The notes under the pieces: generated by a model
The model's database searches: none
Told to the model about the DNA's origin: nothing
What the model saw: only the letters and a program-made list of their open reading frames with translations
Assembly (NCBI RefSeq): GCF_003330725.1
Contig: NZ_CP030840.1
Coordinates: 3,286,001 to 3,350,000, forward strand
From: Acidisarcina polymorpha
GTDB lineage: Bacteria > Acidobacteriota > Terriglobia > Terriglobales > Acidobacteriaceae
Length of the DNA: 64,000 bases
Direction: 5' to 3'
Shown: one piece after another, positions 38,529 through 45,976 of the stretch
Layout of the letters: each line of letters opens with the position of its first letter
Numbering within the stretch: position 1 is the first letter of the stretch
Program-made: the position numbers and the translations under genes

Positions 38529-38736
38529 GGATCTTCCTCGCGTAAGGATTGCTCGATCGCTTCCCAAACCAGTCTGACGAATTCGACGCTGTCCCTCACC
38601 TGTTCGCGTATTGGATCGTGTTGGCGCTTAGATATTGTGAGTTCCGCAATCGATGAGCCGCGATCCGGCACGCGTTCTCCAACCACCATTCTTTTGGCGG
38701 TTCGCGTTCGGGCGGCGAAGTCATGTGTTCGCTCAT
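38525..38736 (-). pseudogene. small ORF coupled to dnaE2, apparently frameshifted
   Basis: Its ATG (38736) shares a base with the dnaE2 stop (TGATG). The frame encodes 46 residues (PPEREPPKEWWLENACRIAAHRL) and stops at 38596. A second frame running to 38525 continues with similar helical, acidic character (IREQVRDSVEFVRLVWEAIEQSLREEDP). Joined by a one-base shift near 38620-38640 they would make a single ~70-residue protein, so I read this as one gene with a frameshift. Unknown function; position ties it to the mutasome operon. Confidence 0.4.
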
Positions 38737-40187
38737 CAGTGCCAGTCGTGTGACTGCATGGGGGCGGCTGTCACGGTCAGTTCTTCGATATGTTTTGCGC
38801 GGATGTGAATGACCTTGTCGACGTTTTGAAGAATCCCTTCGATCAGCAGGAATTTGGCATAGGTTACGAGGGATCGATGGTTCTCATAGAGATCGGGATC
38901 GATGATCGCATTCGACATTCCCGTTTCGTCTTCAATCGAGAGAAAGATGAATCCGTGCGCGGTTCCTGGGCGTTGCCTGGCGATGACGCAGCCAGCGATG
39001 CGTGCTTTCACTCCGTGGCGAAGCAGCGAAAGGTCTCTCGCCGGCACGATGTCCATCTTTCGGAGTTGAGGGCGGCAGTGTGCCATGGGATGACGCCCTA
39101 CAGTCACTCCGGTTGAAGCGTAGTCCGCGACCATTCTCTCGTGCGGTTCCATCGGACGAAGTGGTGAGCTATCCTCTTCATCTCTGTCAAGGGACTCGAG
39201 AAGGGGACCGGCTGCTCGCCCGGCTCGCTCGACTTGCCAGAGCGCATCGCGCCGATGGACCCCTTCACCGATCGTGTTGAGCGCACCCACCTCGGCGAGC
39301 GTCGCCAGATCTGCTCGCGTTAAAGATGGAACCCGTCGCGCCAACTCCTCGATAGATCCAAATGGACGCATGGCGCGAGCGGCCTCAAGCTCAACCGCAC
39401 TCGCCTCTCTCATTCCGCGGACGTAACGAAATCCGAGCCGTAAGGAGAGCTTGCCGTCCTCTTCTTTCTCAAGCGTGCATGACCAGCACGAACGAAGGAT
39501 ATCGACTGGCTTGACGCGAAGCCCGTGCCGTTGCGCGTCCTTGACTAGCACGGCCGCGGAGTAGAAACCCATAGGTTGGTTGTTCAGGATCGCGGCGGTG
39601 AATGCGCCGAGGTAATGGAACTTCAGCCAAGCGCTTGCATACGCGATGAGCGCGAAGCTGGCGGCATGAGACTCCGGAAAGCCATACAAGGCGAAAGAAC
39701 TGATTGATTGAACGATCTCTTCTTGAGCCGCCGGACTCACACTATTCGCATCCATGCCAGCTCGCAGCTTAAGCTCGAGCGCCTTCATCTTGTCTGCCGA
39801 TCGACGACTACCCAGAGCGCGGCGCAGTTCCTCTGCTTCGCCACCAGTAAAGTTGGCAATGGTCATTGCGATGCGCAGCAATTGTTCCTGAAAGAGCGGT
39901 ACTCCGAGAGTTCTTCGTAGGACCGGCTCAAGCAGATGGTGCGGGTAACTAATCTCTTGCCTGCCCTGCCGGCGCTCCATGTAGGGGTTCATCATCTTGC
40001 CCACGATGGGTCCTGGGCGGATGATCGCTACTTGAACGACGAGGTCATAGAACTTATCTGGATTGTTGCGTGGGAGAGACGCCATCTGAGCGCGAGATTC
40101 GACCTGAAACAGGCCCACCGTGTCGGCTCGGCGAAGCGACTCGTACACCTTCGGATCATCATGGGGGATCCTCACGTCCCACCGCAA
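38736..40187 (-). pseudogene. dnaE2: error-prone DNA polymerase III alpha subunit DnaE2, C-terminal half only
   Basis: The 483-residue frame begins inside the polymerase at RIPHDDPKVYESLRRADTVGLFQVESRAQM and continues through IRPGPIVGKMMNPYMERRQG, FGEV-type fingers YGFPESHAASFALIAYASAWLKFHYLGAF and the C-terminal OB-fold region ARIAGCVIARQRPG. DnaE2 proteins are about 1,050 residues. Missing are the PHP domain and the palm with the three catalytic Asp residues (E. coli alpha 401, 403 and 555). The 5' side is fused to imuB, so the product, if made, cannot polymerise. A deletion of roughly 2-3 kb is inferred. Mutasome role in SOS mutagenesis is family knowledge. Confidence 0.9.
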
Positions 40188-40878
40188 GCCTCTGCAGGCG
40201 TTTACCCTGCTGGCCGATCCGACTAATGAGGGCGGTCTCGGGTAGCGCCGCCAGTTCTCCGAGATTGCGGATGCCCCAACGCTTCAGTGTAGCAAGGGTC
40301 GACATCTCAGTGCGTAAGGCTGAGACCGGCAGCGGGGCTAATTTCCGTTCCACATCACGCTCGCTGACATGTGTGACCCCGCTATAGCTTCTCGCCAGCA
40401 ACAGACTTGCTTCCGCGTTTGGTGCCACTGCCACGTTAGAGTGAAACTCGATTTCCTGGAGCGCTTCGCGAATCTTGGTCGCATAGCTTCGACCGTCCCC
40501 AAACAATGTCTCCGTTCCACTTTGGTCGACCAGTAGCGCTGCTGCTGGACAGCCTGTCTTTGCGTACTCATTCAAGGGAGAGGCGATGATCTGAACCCGT
40601 GGAGAAAACCCCTCCGCAGCCTGAAAGACGAGATCGAGGGCTTCCTTCTCCTCGTGAAGCGAACGCGGATGGAAGATGACCCGGCCCGAGGTGTCCGCCT
40701 GAACTTTGCTCATGCCATGACTCAGGCCCATTTCCTTCGCAGCTCGATTGAACGAGACCACCTTCTCAAGTGGCGGCTTCCCATCGATCACCGCAACGGC
40801 GCGCGTTCGAGCGCCTTTGTCGAGCCGTAGCCAAGCAAGCGTGGGGAACTCCGGAATATATATCGCCGCGTATCCCAT
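40159..40878 (-). pseudogene. imuB: ImuB (inactive Y-family polymerase-like protein), truncated
   Basis: Starts at ATG 40878, two bases after the imuA stop. The 239 residues cover the catalytically dead palm/fingers (YAAIYIPEFPTLAWLRLDK, RAVAVIDGKPPLEKVVSFNRAAKEMGLSHGM, FGDGRSYATKIREAL) and the thumb HhH part (LKRWGIRNLGELAALPETALISRIGQQGKRLQRLA). It then ends in REDPP at TGA 40159. Complete ImuB has about 450-550 residues; the little-finger domain, beta-clamp motif and C-terminal interaction tail are lost. The junction lies within ~40165-40185. Confidence 0.88.
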
Positions 40879-40880
40879 GG

Positions 40881-42008
40881 CTATCGCCCCGTAGCCCGCA
40901 TCCAGGCAGGTGTTGCTTCCCAACGCATTGCGCGCCCGGGCGCCTTCTTTGCATAAGGGTTGCTGACTCGTTGTCGCGCTACTTCCGCAGTGTGGATGAA
41001 TCCGCTCAGTAGATCTCCGGAGGCATTCGCAATGCCCGCGGAACAATCGAGGACACAAAGGGCGCTCGATCTTGCACAGGCGATCTGGGTCAACAACAGG
41101 AAGACTGCGTCGCTCTCCTGCGCAGCACGCCGAAACCGGAACCACGTTGCCGAGGGGATGCGAAACGCCTGTTCCGAAGGGACTGAAGCAAGGTCAAGAA
41201 CCCCAACACGAAAGCCGCCTGACTGGAGGATTTGGTTTGCTGCGCGGATGGCGCGATCCAGCCGGGTCCAGGGCTTCTCCGGCTTCTTCGTCATCGCGCT
41301 GAAGACTGTGGGAGCCTGCGCGCGTTCGCGAGCCTCATTTGCGGAACGTCGGTCTGCCTGTCGAATCGGATCCGAAGCGTCTGCGTGCCGCGCATTGAAG
41401 TTTTCATACTCGATCTGCTCTTTCGGAGCCGCCGCGAGGCTTAGTTTGCGGTTTGGATAACCCGGTGTCCCTTCCATCTTTTCGAGCCGCGCATCTGCTT
41501 TCTGGCTAAGCAGGGTGCTGAGAGCACCACCGATGCCCTTCGTTTCCGTTCGAGGATGATGACTGCCGCAATGTCCCCCAACCATCTTCAAGGGATTGGC
41601 CAGAGCAACAAGGGGGGCGACAGATGGTAAAGACGTGGGATATTTCTGATCTGCGCTCGCTTCCGCGTTTCGAACCCAAAGCAGATTCCTGAGGTTGACG
41701 CCGGCTGCGGCTGCGCTCTTTGGATCTAGCGTGTTGTCCACGTCAATATAGGCGCAGGCCGAGTCAGCGGACATTCCTGCAAGCAGCGAGAACGCCATCG
41801 AAGTCCGACCGGAACTTGCAAGGCCGGTAAACTCGGTCACTCCCCCGATCGGTAGACCGCCATCAAGCAAGGCGTCAATCGCTGCGATGCCGGAGGCCAT
41901 AAGCCGGGGGGCCTGATGAGCCTGAGGTGACAAAGCGGCCGGAATGCGAGACGCGAGCTTTGCCTCGATCTCACGTTTCAGTATCGCGCTTTGTGAGGAG
42001 TAGCCCAT
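40881..42008 (-). CDS. imuA: ImuA (RecA-like mutasome protein)
   Basis: 375 residues of the RecA/SulA-like ImuA type that recruits ImuB and DnaE2 to damaged DNA. The N-terminal MASGIAAIDALLDGGLPIGGVTEFTGLASSGRTSMAFSLLAG matches the RecA Walker A region, but with ASSGRTS in place of GPESSGKTT, so ATP binding is doubtful, as in other ImuA proteins. ACAYIDVDNTLDPKSAAAAGVNLRNLLWVRN corresponds to Walker B surroundings. A low-complexity middle (~145-225) is atypical. It appears complete while its two partners are broken. An SOS-like box stands just upstream. Confidence 0.85.
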   Translation of the reverse strand: MGYSSQSAILKREIEAKLASRIPAALSPQAHQAPRLMASGIAAIDALLDGGLPIGGVTEFTGLASSGRTSMAFSLLAGMSADSACAYIDVDNTLDPKSAAAAGVNLRNLLWVRNAEASADQKYPTSLPSVAPLVALANPLKMVGGHCGSHHPRTETKGIGGALSTLLSQKADARLEKMEGTPGYPNRKLSLAAAPKEQIEYENFNARHADASDPIRQADRRSANEARERAQAPTVFSAMTKKPEKPWTRLDRAIRAANQILQSGGFRVGVLDLASVPSEQAFRIPSATWFRFRRAAQESDAVFLLLTQIACARSSALCVLDCSAGIANASGDLLSGFIHTAEVARQRVSNPYAKKAPGRAMRWEATPAWMRATGR

Positions 42009-42573: not shown

Positions 42574-43529
42574 ATGAAGAAAGTGATCCCCAGCGCCTCC
42601 TCAAACGGCGCATCTGAGCGTGAGGATCGAACGCGACCCGCCTATAGGTTCTCCGGTCATGAGACCTTCCCCTTTCGTTATTCCTGGTTGCCTAAGGCAG
42701 TCGCTGAACTAACGACCGATGCGGAATTGTTCAGTGACGACGAGCGAGCAATGGTTCGTCTCGGTGTCGGCAAGAATATGGTCAAAGCAATTCGGTTCTG
42801 GGTCCAGACTGCGGGGATTGCAGCTCCAGATCAAAAGGGATTGATCATCACTGATTTCGGCCGAGAGCTCTTGTCCGAGACAGGAGGACACGATCCTTAC
42901 CTAGAGGACATCCAGACTCTATGGTTGATCCACTGGAAGATCGCTTCTAATGCAGCGGAGCCTTTATTCGCCTGGGAATTTTTACTAAACCGTTGGCAAC
43001 GAGCCGATATCGTTCGGAGCGAAGTTCTGTCTACCTTCATCCAGGAAACAGTTCGGATGGAGAAGCAGTTGTCGGAGGTGACTTTAGCGCAGCACTTCGA
43101 TACGTTCCTCCACACATATATTCCGACTAGAAGCGCCAAAGGAGAGGTCCGAGAGGAGAATCTGGACAGCCCACTCGTCGAGTTGGATCTAATCCGGAAG
43201 ATCGGTGAGAAACGCTCCGGCGACGGAGGGCGCCTCGAAGCGGTCTATGCCTTCAATAGAGAAGCGAAAAGCTCGATCAGTCCGGAACTCTTCATCTATT
43301 GCATCAACGATTACTGGCGGACACGGATTGACTCCGAGGAAACCCTATCGATCCGCGATATCACCGTCAAGACGGGGAGTGTTGGACAGCTATTCAAGCT
43401 CCCCGAGGCGGATATGTCTCTCGTGAAATCGCGAAGTATCACGGTGGGGAGCTTTATTTGTCAGATGAGACGACAATGCACCCAGAAAAGCTGAATACGT
43501 TTGTTTTTGATCTGCCTTCGGAGGATTGA
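42574..43529 (+). pseudogene. DUF4007 protein (SspB-like, phosphorothioation-defence type), frameshifted
   Basis: ATG 42574. RFSGHETFPFRYSWLPKAVAEL and RLGVGKNMVKAIRFWVQTAGI followed by DPYLEDIQTLWLIHWKIAS are diagnostic of DUF4007. As I recall, that family includes SspB of the Ssp DNA-phosphorothioation defence system and related Dnd-like clusters. The frame runs to TGA at 43492-43494 with a nonsense-like tail, but shifting frame near 43419 gives REIAKYHGGELYLSDETTMHPEKLNTF and a stop at 43529, overlapping the next ATG (TGATG). One base lost in CTCTCGTG explains it. Repaired length 318. Partner genes (cysteine desulfurase, ATPase, sulfurtransferase) are absent or reduced to fragments. Confidence 0.8.
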
Positions 43530-43990
43530 TGCTCGTACTCGATACCGCAGCTGAGCTTAAGGAAATGTTCGAGAAGCAGAATCTTCGTAAGGTGGCCATC
43601 ATCGATGACGCTTACATCAAGGTTCCGACTAGGGCAGCATTTGAACGAGACAACAGGATGGCTGTACTTCTTGAAGACATTCAAAAGTGGCAAAATCCCC
43701 TCGAAGGTTTTGTTGATCTCCCGCGAGCGCTCGAGACAGAAGAATCGATCACTGACGCATTGCTGAAGGATTTGTATTCACACAAAGCCGAATCGGCTGC
43801 CCTCGCCGGTGGTGGGCAGGAACTTCGGTGGCACCCATTCGGTCTGATTCGACGCAATGCGCGGCAGGCCTCGGAGGTCAACCGGATCGAGTTGCACGGC
43901 CCGGACATCGAGGAAGTCATAATCGAGGTCGGCAGCGACTTGGCCGACGATCTGCGATTTTCCGACGCCGCATGGCCCCCAGATATGTAG
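43529..43990 (+). CDS. receiver-like protein fragment fused to reversed MoxR sequence
   Basis: The first ~90 residues from ATG 43529 look native: LDTAAELKEMFEKQNLRKVAIIDDAYIKVPTRAAF resembles the start of a receiver or pseudo-receiver domain with an IDD acidic pair. It is translationally coupled to the DUF4007 gene. After about 43795 the frame merely reads the opposite strand of a MoxR-type ATPase gene to a stop at 43990, so the true C-terminus has been lost by rearrangement. The residual product would be chimeric and is probably non-functional. Confidence 0.55.
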   Translation: MLVLDTAAELKEMFEKQNLRKVAIIDDAYIKVPTRAAFERDNRMAVLLEDIQKWQNPLEGFVDLPRALETEESITDALLKDLYSHKAESAALAGGGQELRWHPFGLIRRNARQASEVNRIELHGPDIEEVIIEVGSDLADDLRFSDAAWPPDM

Positions 43991-44047
43991 GGGCACACGC
44001 TCGCCAATGAGCGCATGAAGCGCTTCATAGAGCTTGGAGGGTTTCAT
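43778..44047 (-). pseudogene. MoxR-family AAA+ ATPase, N-terminal fragment
   Basis: ATG 44047 with AAGGA seven bases upstream. PSKLYEALHALIGERVPLHIWGPCGVGKSQIVGQVA contains a Walker A motif (GPCGVGKS), followed by DYDFLDVRAVQLDPVDLRGLP, the MoxR/VWA-associated pattern. After ~84 residues it runs through the junction at about 43795 and stops at 43778. Walker B, sensor and arginine-finger regions are missing. Converges on the receiver fragment. Confidence 0.75.
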
Positions 44048-44136
44048 GGTTCGTCCTTGATGGAGACTGAAATGGGCTACTGCTGGCGCAGAGAGTCTTG
44101 CCTACGGGTATGTGATTGGAAGTGACTAGGAATGTA

Positions 44137-44430
44137 TTACCGGATGGTTCCGTAATCTCGGATCGTTCTTACATTGCCTCTGTTCGACTTCAGAAGACGA
44201 ACCCGGAACTCGACCCTTGGGACAGGTTCGATAAAAAAGAATGTGCCGTCTGTGAACTGGATTTCGAAGGCCGATAGACCCTGCGAAGGGCCGACGCAGC
44301 GGATGAAATCTACTGTCTTTCCTCTCGCGTCCTCGTAGAGGATCCCTTGAGTAGCGTTCTCCGGTTCGGAGGGTGATTCGGCAGAGTGCTCCGTGGAACT
44401 TTGTTTTGCCTGTGTCGTTTTCCGCTTCAT
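44137..44430 (-). CDS. small hypothetical protein
   Basis: 97 residues from ATG 44430, which has a strong GGAGGGGA site. A Ser/Thr/Lys-rich disordered start is followed by a compact beta-rich C-terminus (GKTVDFIRCVGPSQGLSAFEIQFTDGTFFFIEPVPRVEFRVRLL). Not recognised. The same frame is open upstream to a PP-loop-like fragment, so the gene may now be read as part of a longer chimera. It precedes the MoxR fragment on the same strand. Confidence 0.55.
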   Translation of the reverse strand: MKRKTTQAKQSSTEHSAESPSEPENATQGILYEDARGKTVDFIRCVGPSQGLSAFEIQFTDGTFFFIEPVPRVEFRVRLLKSNRGNVRTIRDYGTIR

Positions 44431-44622
44431 GTCCCCTCCCCGATCAAGACCCATGGTGTGCAATTCGTGCAAGGAGCCACGCGGCCGAGAAGCCTGGCAG
44501 TCGTTCTCTTGCGAGGATACCCAGTTCATCAAGCCGGCAAGCCGGACGGAGGCGCCGTCCAGCCAGCGCACCAAGATAGCCATGGATTCCACCCCATCCC
44601 CATAGGAGAAGATGGTTTTCAT
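44431..44622 (-). pseudogene. PP-loop (PAPS-reductase-like) enzyme N-terminal fragment
   Basis: From ATG 44622 the protein starts KTIFSYGDGVESMAILVRWLDGAS, matching the PP-loop motif region of PAPS-reductase/adenine nucleotide alpha hydrolase proteins (SYGGGVxSxAxL). After about 25 residues homology stops and the frame runs on into the next small protein. Such PP-loop enzymes occur in sulfur-based DNA modification clusters and on phages or plasmids; either source is possible. Confidence 0.5.
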
Positions 44623-44667: not shown

Positions 44668-45315
44668 CTACTCGATCAATACTTTGAGATCTGAGGCGAG
44701 CGCCATTGCGCCCGCATGGACAACGCCATTTTCCATCAGTGGGGTGGAGGCGCCAGCAGGACGAAGTTCTGAGGCTTTGACCCTGGTCCCGAACAGAACG
44801 ACCGCACGAGCGCGGTCATCCTGCCTGCTCGGCCAGATCAGTCCATGCGCCTGTGGGTACGCAGAGTATAAAGTTTCGGCCCACCTCCTGGTTTCCGGGT
44901 AGTGGGCCTTTGTTGTATCGATGAGTTCGTGAGGATGAACGCCGAGTCGGCGCAAACCGACCTTTCCGAGGTCGATGAGCTGGAAGTCTGAAAGAAAGAC
45001 GAGTGTCGATGTGAGCTTGTCTTTGAATCTGTCGATCGAGACTCGTTTGAATCCCGGCTTGTACGGGACATCATGAAAGACGGTCTCCATCAGCGCTCCC
45101 TGTGAAGTGGTAGCCGCATAGAGGGTCGGGATCACCTCTCCAGCCGAATCATGTATCGGGCTGAAACGCGCATTGCCCTGCTTCCTCGGGTTGAACAAGT
45201 CGACCGCATACGCGGTGTCATGAACCCGGTACATGATCTCGCTGGCACCCCATGAGATCAACTTGGCGTCGAGCGGTCCAGCAGGCGGCGCCGTGCCCGG
45301 CACCGGATTAGCCAT
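44668..45315 (-). CDS. RES-domain toxin (NAD+ phosphorylase type)
   Basis: 215 residues from ATG 45315. RES toxins deplete NAD+. The named residues are visible: Arg in IMYRVHD, Tyr in TLYAATT region, Glu in ALMETVFHDVP and Ser in LIWPSRQDD. Its start overlaps the stop of the antitoxin-like gene by eight bases, the standard toxin-after-antitoxin coupling of RES-Xre modules. The gene seems intact. Start chosen over 45336 to place it near the normal family N-terminus. Confidence 0.85.
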   Translation of the reverse strand: MANPVPGTAPPAGPLDAKLISWGASEIMYRVHDTAYAVDLFNPRKQGNARFSPIHDSAGEVIPTLYAATTSQGALMETVFHDVPYKPGFKRVSIDRFKDKLTSTLVFLSDFQLIDLGKVGLRRLGVHPHELIDTTKAHYPETRRWAETLYSAYPQAHGLIWPSRQDDRARAVVLFGTRVKASELRPAGASTPLMENGVVHAGAMALASDLKVLIE

Positions 45316-45976
45316 GTTGCACTCCAGCGACCTCATCCTTCGCGGCTGCGATCACCCGATCCGGATCGACCGCCAACACGTCCTGGGGTCGCTCGTCATT
45401 GAGAAAGCTATTCAGCGCGGCGAACCAGAAAGCCAAGCTCCAGCCATCCTTGGCATCACCGAAGATTCGGAGGATCTCCGCCATCTGCTTGCGGGGACGA
45501 TGGTCATCCGGATTCAGGGCATACAACGGGAAATAATCATCTCTCCCGTGCTGGATCGCAAAGATGTCTCGATTGCGCTTCCACTTGTTCGGCTGAACGC
45601 TCGGATTGACGGCGCTAAAACCGGCGAGCTTTGCCAACGCGCTTGCTGGGAGGAAGTCCCCGCTATTGAGGATGTCCGTCTTCGCGTCGATCATCATGCG
45701 AGCTTGCTCACGCGCCGCCTTCGAAGGCGCAACATCCGTGAGGAAGATGCTGACGAACTTCTGAAGCGTCTCCGCCTGACGTTGCTCGATGAGTTGGGGG
45801 AGGAACTCGGCAACGCGCTGAAAAACACTTTCTGCGGCTGCCACCTGCTCGTCGTCTGCAAAGCTCACAGCGACCGTCCGCCTATTCGGCGATTTATGGA
45901 GCAAAGCGATGACGTCTTGCCCACTGCCGCTCATCACGAACGGCGTAACCTGCTCAAATCGCTTGCCATTCGACAT
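45308..45976 (-). CDS. antitoxin-like protein with MbcA/ParS (DUF2384-type) C-terminal domain
   Basis: 222 residues. The C-terminal ~60 (MAEILRIFGDAKDGWSLAFWFAALNSFLNDERPQDVLAVDPDRVIAAA) match the toxin-binding MbcA/ParS domain of RES antitoxins. The N-terminal half is longer than the usual ~130-160 residue antitoxin; it includes ILNSGDFLPASALAKLAGFS, a possible HTH. It probably binds RES to block the NAD+ site and represses its own promoter. A perfect 10-bp inverted repeat lies 36 bp upstream. Confidence 0.78.
   Translation of the reverse strand: MSNGKRFEQVTPFVMSGSGQDVIALLHKSPNRRTVAVSFADDEQVAAAESVFQRVAEFLPQLIEQRQAETLQKFVSIFLTDVAPSKAAREQARMMIDAKTDILNSGDFLPASALAKLAGFSAVNPSVQPNKWKRNRDIFAIQHGRDDYFPLYALNPDDHRPRKQMAEILRIFGDAKDGWSLAFWFAALNSFLNDERPQDVLAVDPDRVIAAAKDEVAGVQHG

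What the first reader, a model, noticed from the sequence alone, without database searches (positions are those of the whole stretch)
42574..44622. Wreck of a sulfur-type DNA modification/defence island
A DUF4007 gene (a family that I recall includes SspB of the phosphorothioation defence systems) is frameshifted and coupled to a receiver-like gene. That gene is fused head-on, at about 43795, to a truncated MoxR ATPase, followed by a PP-loop (PAPS-reductase-like) start. The DUF4007-receiver coupling is not a familiar Ssp arrangement and may show a variant layout in an intact relative.
Basis: partly seen in the sequence, partly recalled or inferred. Interest (0 to 1): 0.6.

Follow-up and report, generated by a model that had tools for sequence, protein, structure and literature searches.

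The report
Wrecked phosphorothioation island with kinase-receiver pair
A broken bacterial anti-phage locus whose surviving scraps come from a DNA-sulfur-marking system that, in intact relatives, travels with its own histidine-kinase and receiver pair, a partnership I did not see described in the papers I could search.

Summary
The locus is a wreck of an Ssp (DNA phosphorothioation) island, but not quite as first described. 42574-43416 is SspB/DUF4007 (PADLOC SspB 1.1e-109). Its "frameshift" is a deletion junction: from 43413 the other frame encodes the last 38 codons of a GHKL histidine kinase (26.0 bits against best of 5000 shuffles 3.9; 22 of 38 identical to the kinase of G251, a genome of the same phylum). 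The receiver-like gene follows that tail and is cut at 43798, where a fragment of an unrelated MoxR gene begins on the other strand. The PP-loop start found no support. So the DUF4007-receiver coupling is a product of decay, but intact relatives do carry SspBCD (often SspA, SspFGH) with a kinase-receiver pair. That receiver family was found in 11 of 72,556 plasmid records, and all 11 carry DUF4007 1.9-16.7 kb away; in 5 of 395 Bacteroidota genomes, all 5 with SspB (one truncated) nearby; and in one further genome of the window's phylum, in one same-strand run with SspBCDFGH. PADLOC has no family for the receiver, Pfam no credible one. Its role as a phosphorelay is inference.

The parts
42574..43416 (+). 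sspB/DUF4007 remnant (about 281 codons, C-terminus lost)
   Evidence: Pfam DUF4007 2.4e-63, profile 1-246/288; PADLOC SspB 1.1e-109; 53-58% identical to SspB of L004-L007
43410..43416 (.). deletion junction between sspB and the 3' end of the histidine-kinase gene (frame changes here)
   Evidence: SspB homology ends at FKLPEADM (43416); kinase homology begins at YVSREIA (43413)
43413..43529 (+). last 38 codons and stop of a GHKL histidine kinase (HK)
   Evidence: 26.0 bits vs 13-member HK HMM (residues from 43419), best of 5000 shuffles 3.9; E 1.3e-8 in six-frame scan of window plus the G251 stretch; 22/38 identical to G251 HK C-terminus
43529..43798 (+). 5' fragment of the receiver-like gene (IIDDAY acidic pair kept, phosphoacceptor region lost); ATG overlaps HK stop (TGATG)
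   Evidence: 24.4 bits vs 13-member REC HMM, best of 5000 shuffles 8.1; only hit of alignment A3 in whole genome G000, E 5.2e-5
43798..43800 (.). head-on junction receiver fragment / MoxR fragment
   Evidence: blastn homology to intact MoxR loci stops at 43798 (L043/L059) and 43800 (L044/L058)
43798..44047 (-). 5' fragment of a MoxR-type AAA+ ATPase gene from another cassette (not part of the Ssp system)
   Evidence: 78-92% protein identity to full-length genes in G447, G469 and elsewhere in this genome; family hits weak (best Pfam AAA 0.0038, below cut-off)
44137..44430 (-). 97-codon ORF of unknown function, apparently intact, Shine-Dalgarno-like sequence upstream
   Evidence: weak homologues in 2 of 119 other relatives; none in plasmids

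Best explanation
The stretch 42574-43798 is what is left of an Ssp DNA-phosphorothioation defence island of the variant that carries a dedicated histidine kinase-receiver pair. An internal deletion joined codon ~281 of sspB to the last 38 codons of the kinase gene. About 15.5 kb would have been lost if the ancestor was laid out like G251 (B-C-D-F-G-H-HK-REC), about 6 kb if like L006 (B-C-HK-REC-D). A second rearrangement cut the receiver gene and abutted it to a fragment of an unrelated MoxR gene. Shown: the identity of the pieces, the junctions, and the recurring co-location of the pair with Ssp genes in relatives. Inferred for the intact system: SspABCD marks self DNA with sulfur. The kinase has two GHKL ATPase domains and an invariant His-Glu, and autophosphorylates when it senses infection or loss of the mark. 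The receiver has the canonical Asp-Asp, Asp, Ser and Lys residues, takes the phosphate, and through its large unknown C-terminal part gates the restriction arm (SspFGH where present) or acts as the effector. The wreck itself is most likely non-functional. Confidence is for the anatomy; I put the gating mechanism at about 0.4.
For: SspB. Kinase tail: only significant hit among 534 locus ORFs is a kinase C-terminus (E 1.7e-6); 26.0 bits vs 3.9 best of 5000 shuffles; 22/38 identity to G251. Receiver fragment. Window SspB falls in a supported 13-row group (98/96; make-up in the full report). Co-location by receiver-first searches: 11 of 11 plasmid records also carry DUF4007, which is in 97 of 72,556; 5 of 5 Bacteroidota genomes, against DUF4007 in 25 of 390; G251. 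The 11 best kinase hits in plasmids are the same 11 records. Catalytic residues: kinase H569/E570 in 13 of 13; receiver D, D, D, S, K invariant in the 12 rows of A3. Deletion spans: G251; L006 from the match end and the kinase end.
Against: The receiver fragment is short and its match covers about 40 residues; it scored no better than shuffles against a 3-member profile. Genomes of the closest SspB relatives L004 and L005 gave no receiver hit (a single-sequence query to a family with ~20% identity, so weak evidence). One close SspB relative, L007, has SspBCDFGH without the pair, and L008 has SspB alone. The kinase family is not specific: 1,070 plasmid records match it at E 1e-5, 21 over 80% of its length. 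The receivers match no credible Pfam family, their profile match to true response regulators is modest (probability 19.8%, E 0.0011), and the structure prediction failed (pLDDT 37). An assembly error at a junction cannot be excluded without reads.
Confidence: 0.87

Rival explanations
1. One reading: a DUF4007 gene with a point frameshift, natively coupled to a receiver gene, i.e. a genuine variant two-gene layout.
For: The open frames abut and the receiver ATG overlaps the preceding stop; receiver and DUF4007 do share islands elsewhere.
Against: The out-of-frame tail matches kinase C-termini and does not resemble the C-termini of the six DUF4007 proteins printed beside it; no kinase-receiver locus laid out here has the receiver directly after DUF4007.
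Confidence: 0.04
2. The junctions are assembly artefacts joining unrelated contigs, and an intact Ssp island lies elsewhere in the genome.
For: The genome is held in 5 contigs of unknown read support.
Against: DUF4007 and the receiver family each gave one match in the genome, here; four gene fragments within about 1.5 kb look like ordinary decay; a similar wreck (truncated SspB, open kinase, broken receiver) exists in another phylum, G901/L084. SspA, SspC and SspD were not searched in the rest of the genome.
Confidence: 0.06
3. For the intact relatives: the kinase-receiver pair is a passenger of defence islands, not a functional partner of Ssp.
For: Order and orientation vary; L007 and most SspB-first loci lack the pair (3 of 37 show it); the kinase family is widespread on plasmids.
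Against: Receiver-first searches each time landed on a record or genome with SspB nearby (11 of 11 plasmid records, 5 of 5 Bacteroidota, 1 further genome of the window's phylum); the pair lies between sspC and sspD in L006, L068 and L081.
Confidence: 0.15

Closest known systems
SspABCD-SspFGH phosphorothioate defence system (PMC8092258; passages seen)
   Same: SspB in the window; in relatives the same SspBCD core, usually with SspA, and in L068, L072-L075, L081 and G251 also SspF, SspG and an FtsK/SpoIIIE-type gene that I take as SspH. PADLOC names were obtained for L068 only (SspH not submitted); the other loci are by my own HMMs.
   Different: The main text holds no 'histidine kinase', 'two-component' or 'HATPase'; here a kinase-receiver pair is in or beside the locus. 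The window copy is broken.
SspABCD-SspE (known from recall and abstracts)
   Same: Same modification core
   Different: SspE was not searched for by name; no claim.
Type-4 BREX (PMC12839542; passages seen)
   Same: Shares homologues of SspB (DUF4007), SspC (BrxC) and SspD (PAPS reductase), as that paper states
   Different: ATPase and reductase of L068 score far better as SspC and SspD (1334 and 388 bits) than as BrxC and BrxP (503 and 35); PglZ and BrxL were not searched for.
HATPase/REC predicted defence system of DefensePredictor (PMC13092281; passages and figure legends seen)
   Same: A histidine-kinase-like ATPase and a receiver among predicted defence systems (Fig. 6F legend)
   Different: No 'Ssp' in that text; whether it is the same family cannot be told from the legend.
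HEF_HK kinases (Pfam PF19191); the Pfam receiver family Response_reg_2 is named from recall
   Same: HEF_HK matches 6 of 13 kinases here (best 7.1e-5; in L006 22.4 bits, below the cut-off of 24.1)
   Different: The receivers match no Pfam receiver family at E 0.1.

Membership tests
Ssp phosphorothioation system (window locus) | SspB/DUF4007 protein | tested here: met
   PADLOC SspB 1.1e-109, but C-terminus lost
Ssp phosphorothioation system (window locus) | SspC ATPase, SspD PAPS-reductase-like, SspA desulfurase present in the window | tested here: not met
   Six-frame scan of the 64 kb window (ORFs of 30 codons or more, E 0.01) with nine HMMs finds SspB, kinase tail and receiver only
Ssp phosphorothioation system (intact relatives) | SspB-SspC-SspD operon, with SspA | tested here: met
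   PADLOC names SspB, C, D, F, G and SspA (tied with DndA) in L068; layouts by my HMMs; SspA not seen in the 39 kb G251 stretch
Ssp phosphorothioation system | Phosphorothioate in DNA | not testable with these tools
   needs chemistry or sequencing of modified DNA
Two-component histidine kinase (kinase of relatives) | HATPase_c domain and a conserved phosphoacceptor-like His | tested here: met
   HATPase_c and HATPase_c_3 in 13 of 13; H569/E570 in 13 of 13; that this His is phosphorylated is inference
Receiver domain (receiver of relatives) | Acidic pair, phosphoacceptor Asp, Ser/Thr, Lys in order | tested here: met
   D23, D24, D157, S210, K237 invariant in the 12 rows of A3; in a 13-row alignment the first Asp fails in L069 (start annotated late, left out of A3) and the Ser column in L065
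Receiver domain (receiver of relatives) | Recognised similarity to response regulators / receiver fold | tested here: inconclusive
   hhalign E 0.0011, probability 19.8%, phospho-Asp in register; no credible Pfam hit, no solved relative, model pLDDT 37
Receiver domain (window fragment) | Phosphoacceptor Asp present | tested here: not met
   Gene cut at 43798, before that region
BREX type 4 | PglZ and BrxL | not tested
   not searched for

The most novel reading that the evidence does not exclude
A dedicated phosphorelay is a core part of one branch of Ssp phosphorothioation defences: a double-GHKL kinase senses loss of sulfur marks or infection and phosphorylates a receiver-effector found essentially only in Ssp islands. 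This would be two-component signalling wired directly into a DNA-modification defence, either gating SspFGH or replacing it as the killing arm.
Probability: 0.4. Interest if true: 0.78.

Novelty: new variant of a known kind. Interest (0 to 1): 0.55.

Why it matters
Ssp systems are described as a modification core plus a nuclease arm (SspE or SspFGH). A conserved kinase-receiver pair, sometimes between the ssp genes themselves, would mean that some phosphorothioation defences are switched by a phosphorelay. It gives a concrete, testable system: one annotated plasmid copy is in Methylorubrum extorquens (A-B-C-D-HK-REC in a row). The receiver has no PADLOC family and no credible Pfam family, so annotation that relies on these may miss it. 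The wreck also shows how a decayed island can look like a new gene pairing.

Tried and rejected
Rejected: simple frameshift of DUF4007 (the tail is kinase); MoxR as part of the sulfur island; PP-loop/PAPS-reductase start. Led nowhere: receiver fragment alone against 396 genomes (one hit, itself), plasmids and viral contigs; kinase and receiver alignments against viral contigs (24 and 212 pattern matches, none confirmed); L006 receiver in 12 genomes of DUF4007 relatives (only its own); receiver alignment against solved structures (best E 0.88); AlphaFold model of the L034 receiver from 3 sequences (pLDDT 37), so no fold search was run. A first receiver profile of 3 members gave no significance for the window fragment; the 13-member profile did; both are reported. 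One search also printed an L006 deletion span that is invalid (the motif was not found there); the ~6 kb figure uses instead. The early ORF list missed the L006 receiver because of an overlap filter; it was found by tblastn and a six-frame reading.

Full report
What is there. The window lies in a 7.6 Mb genome held in 5 contigs. ORF 42574-43494 begins as a DUF4007 protein: Pfam 2.4e-63, profile positions 1-246 of 288, PADLOC SspB 1.1e-109. It is the only DUF4007 match in the genome. DUF4007 was found in 3 of 61 genomes including this one. G+C is 0.53 in the sspB part and 0.47 in the kinase-tail and receiver part, against 0.56 for the window.

The 'frameshift' is a deletion scar. SspB homology stops at FKLPEADM (43416). 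In the other frame, from 43413 to the stop at 43527-43529, the DNA reads YVSREIAKYHGGELYLSDETTMHPEKLNTFVFDLPSED. It does not resemble the C-termini of the six DUF4007 proteins printed beside it. Among 534 ORFs of the 40 loci then held, its only significant match is the C-terminus of a histidine-kinase-like protein two genes downstream of DUF4007 in L006, Hymenobacter elongatus (E 1.7e-6). With a 13-member kinase profile it scores 26.0 bits, best of 5000 shuffles 3.9. The best single match among 18 kinases is that of G251, a genome of the window's own phylum: 22 of 38 identical.

The receiver fragment. The next gene starts at 43529, its ATG overlapping the kinase stop by one base, like the tight kinase-receiver spacing of intact loci such as L034 and L068. 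No library gave a credible name (weak hits are listed under the observation check). Against a 3-member receiver profile it was indistinguishable from shuffles (6.5 vs 7.0 bits). With 13 members it scores 24.4 against a best of 8.1 in 5000 shuffles. Searching 376 genomes of the phylum with the 12-row receiver alignment A3 (window not included) gave two hits: this spot in G000 (E 5.2e-5) and G251 (1.4e-108). The similarity covers about 40 residues around IIDDAY, and the cut at 43798 lies before the phosphoacceptor region.

The other side. At 43798-43800 homology to intact MoxR genes begins on the minus strand. Full-length relatives are followed by a gene of 314-317 codons in L057, L058 and L059, and in L057, this genome's own second copy at 78% identity, by a third of 388 codons (read from ORF starts, not by family search). 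A 97-codon ORF lies upstream of the MoxR fragment, with weak homologues in 2 of 119 other relatives. The proposed PP-loop start has no support.

Intact relatives. Layouts from my HMM scans and annotation. L034, L035, L064, L065: A-B-C-D-HK-REC. L006: divergent A, then B-C-HK-REC-D-F, where the locus ends; L081 the same, continuing G-H. L068: A-B-C-HK-REC-D-F-G-H. L072 and L074: HK-REC facing H-G-F-D-C-B-A. L067: HK-REC facing D-C-B-A. L070: HK-REC then A-B-C-D. L073 and L075: HK-REC in one island with A-B-C-D and F-G-H. L069: HK-REC, then A, B, C after several genes. G251: B-C-D-F-G-H-HK-REC on one strand. L082 and L083: HK-REC in one island with B-C-D, no F-G-H in the fetched stretches. L084 (G901): a second wreck, SspB cut to about 150 codons, the kinase open, the receiver broken. 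PADLOC was run on L068 only among these: SspA (tied with DndA), SspB, SspC, SspD, SspF, SspG; its receiver has no match and its kinase only REase_II matches. My SspH profile was built from two FtsK/SpoIIIE-domain genes in the expected place and was not checked against PADLOC, so 'H' is my label.

How tight is the link? Receiver-first searches were not steered by SspB. Plasmids: receiver of L067 in 11 of 72,556 records at E 1e-3 (the L034 receiver found 5 of these 11). All 11 appear among the 60 rows shown of the 97 DUF4007 records, 1.9 to 16.7 kb apart; hypergeometric P 1.4e-32, or 9e-27 if only 9 are counted as independent (two Agrobacterium records have identical coordinates). I fetched the surroundings of 10 of the 11 (not CP123850). 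Bacteroidota: 5 of 395, one of which (G502) is the L006 genome and was reached through SspB; all 5 have SspB nearby, against DUF4007 in 25 of 390 genomes of that phylum. G901 is not among those 25, its SspB being truncated, and I cannot tell whether it was in that draw; its SspB was found by my own profile at 47 bits. Window phylum: G251, SspB in the same gene run. The converse does not hold: of 37 SspB-first loci 3 show the pair (several contigs end too early), L007 has SspBCDFGH without it, and a search of 12 genomes of such relatives with the L006 receiver found only itself.

The kinase alone is not specific: 1,070 plasmid records match the L034 kinase at E 1e-5, 21 of them over 80% of its length. 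The 11 best of these are exactly the 11 receiver records; the next, Polaromonas (28% identity), has DUF4007 about 6 kb away but no receiver match.

Tree. In an SspB tree of 48 rows the window falls in a supported 13-row group (98/96): 8 kinase-linked, 1 not linked (L007) and 4 that I had labelled unknown, namely the window, L004, L005 and L008. L008 should rather count as not linked, since its 20 kb stretch shows SspB alone; that makes 8 linked, 2 not, 3 undetermined. The plasmid rows were chosen because they carry the pair, so clustering of the label is partly by selection. Three rows were dropped before the tree: L002 (same place as L055) and the partial L011 and L027.

Domains. Kinase: HATPase_c_3 and HATPase_c in 13 of 13, HEF_HK in 6 of 13; invariant His569-Glu570 and GHKL residues in 13 of 13. 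Receiver: D23, D24, D157, S210, K237 (L067 numbering) invariant in the 12 rows of A3, from which L069 was left out because its annotated start is late. In a separate 13-row alignment the first Asp fails in L069 and the Ser column in L065. Pfam at E 0.1 gave only two isolated, one-member hits (ERAP1_C, DUF4190). Profile comparison with three response regulators aligns the phospho-Asp in register but weakly (E 0.0011, probability 19.8%). That this is a receiver rests mainly on the five residues and their order.

Mechanism. Inferred, not shown: the kinase senses infection or absence of sulfur marks, passes phosphate to the receiver, and the receiver's C-terminal part switches SspFGH or is itself the effector. 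In PMC8092258 (a legend passage) growth impairment by SspFGH is relieved by sspBCD, so a switch on such an arm would be useful. The pair also occurs in loci where I saw no SspFGH (L034, L035, L064, L065, L067, L069, L070, L082, L083; stretches limited), which leaves the effector reading open.

Literature. In the listings (each showing 1 to 20 papers, titles and abstract starts) I saw none that links Ssp genes to a kinase-receiver pair. Four papers were opened, by passages or legends: PMC12839542, PMC10853773 ('receiver' and 'histidine kinase' absent from its main text), PMC8092258 and PMC13092281, the last listing a predicted HATPase/REC system in a figure legend without mention of Ssp. Subscription papers and supplements were not seen, so prior description elsewhere is possible.

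Noticed in passing
44668-45976: A RES-domain gene (Pfam RES 9.4e-19) with a 222-aa partner gene; the same pair (43% and 44% identity) lies at L070:4082-5528, a plasmid that also carries an Ssp island. The partner has no Pfam match.
   Followed up: partly
38736-42008: A RecA/ImuA-like gene (NCBIfam ImuA 30.8 bits, below its cut-off of 150) and, by eye from the ORF list, a Y-family polymerase-like (ImuB) and a DnaE2-like gene: an ImuA-ImuB-DnaE2-type mutagenesis cassette next to the wreck.
   Followed up: no
L084:8849-12055 (G901): A second wreck of the same kind: SspB cut to about 150 codons directly before an open kinase gene and a broken receiver.
   Followed up: partly
L082:12013-14622 and L055:9185-11806: An SMC/DndD-like ATPase plus a 153-154-aa gene recur beside SspBCD where no SspFGH was seen; possibly another Ssp partner module (judged by eye).
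   Followed up: no
44137-44430: An apparently intact 97-codon ORF with a strong Shine-Dalgarno-like sequence, left between gene fragments.
   Followed up: partly
L057:8584-11746: Apparently intact MoxR gene with two following genes elsewhere in the window's own genome (about 6.64 Mb), relative of the fragment at 43798-44047.
   Followed up: partly
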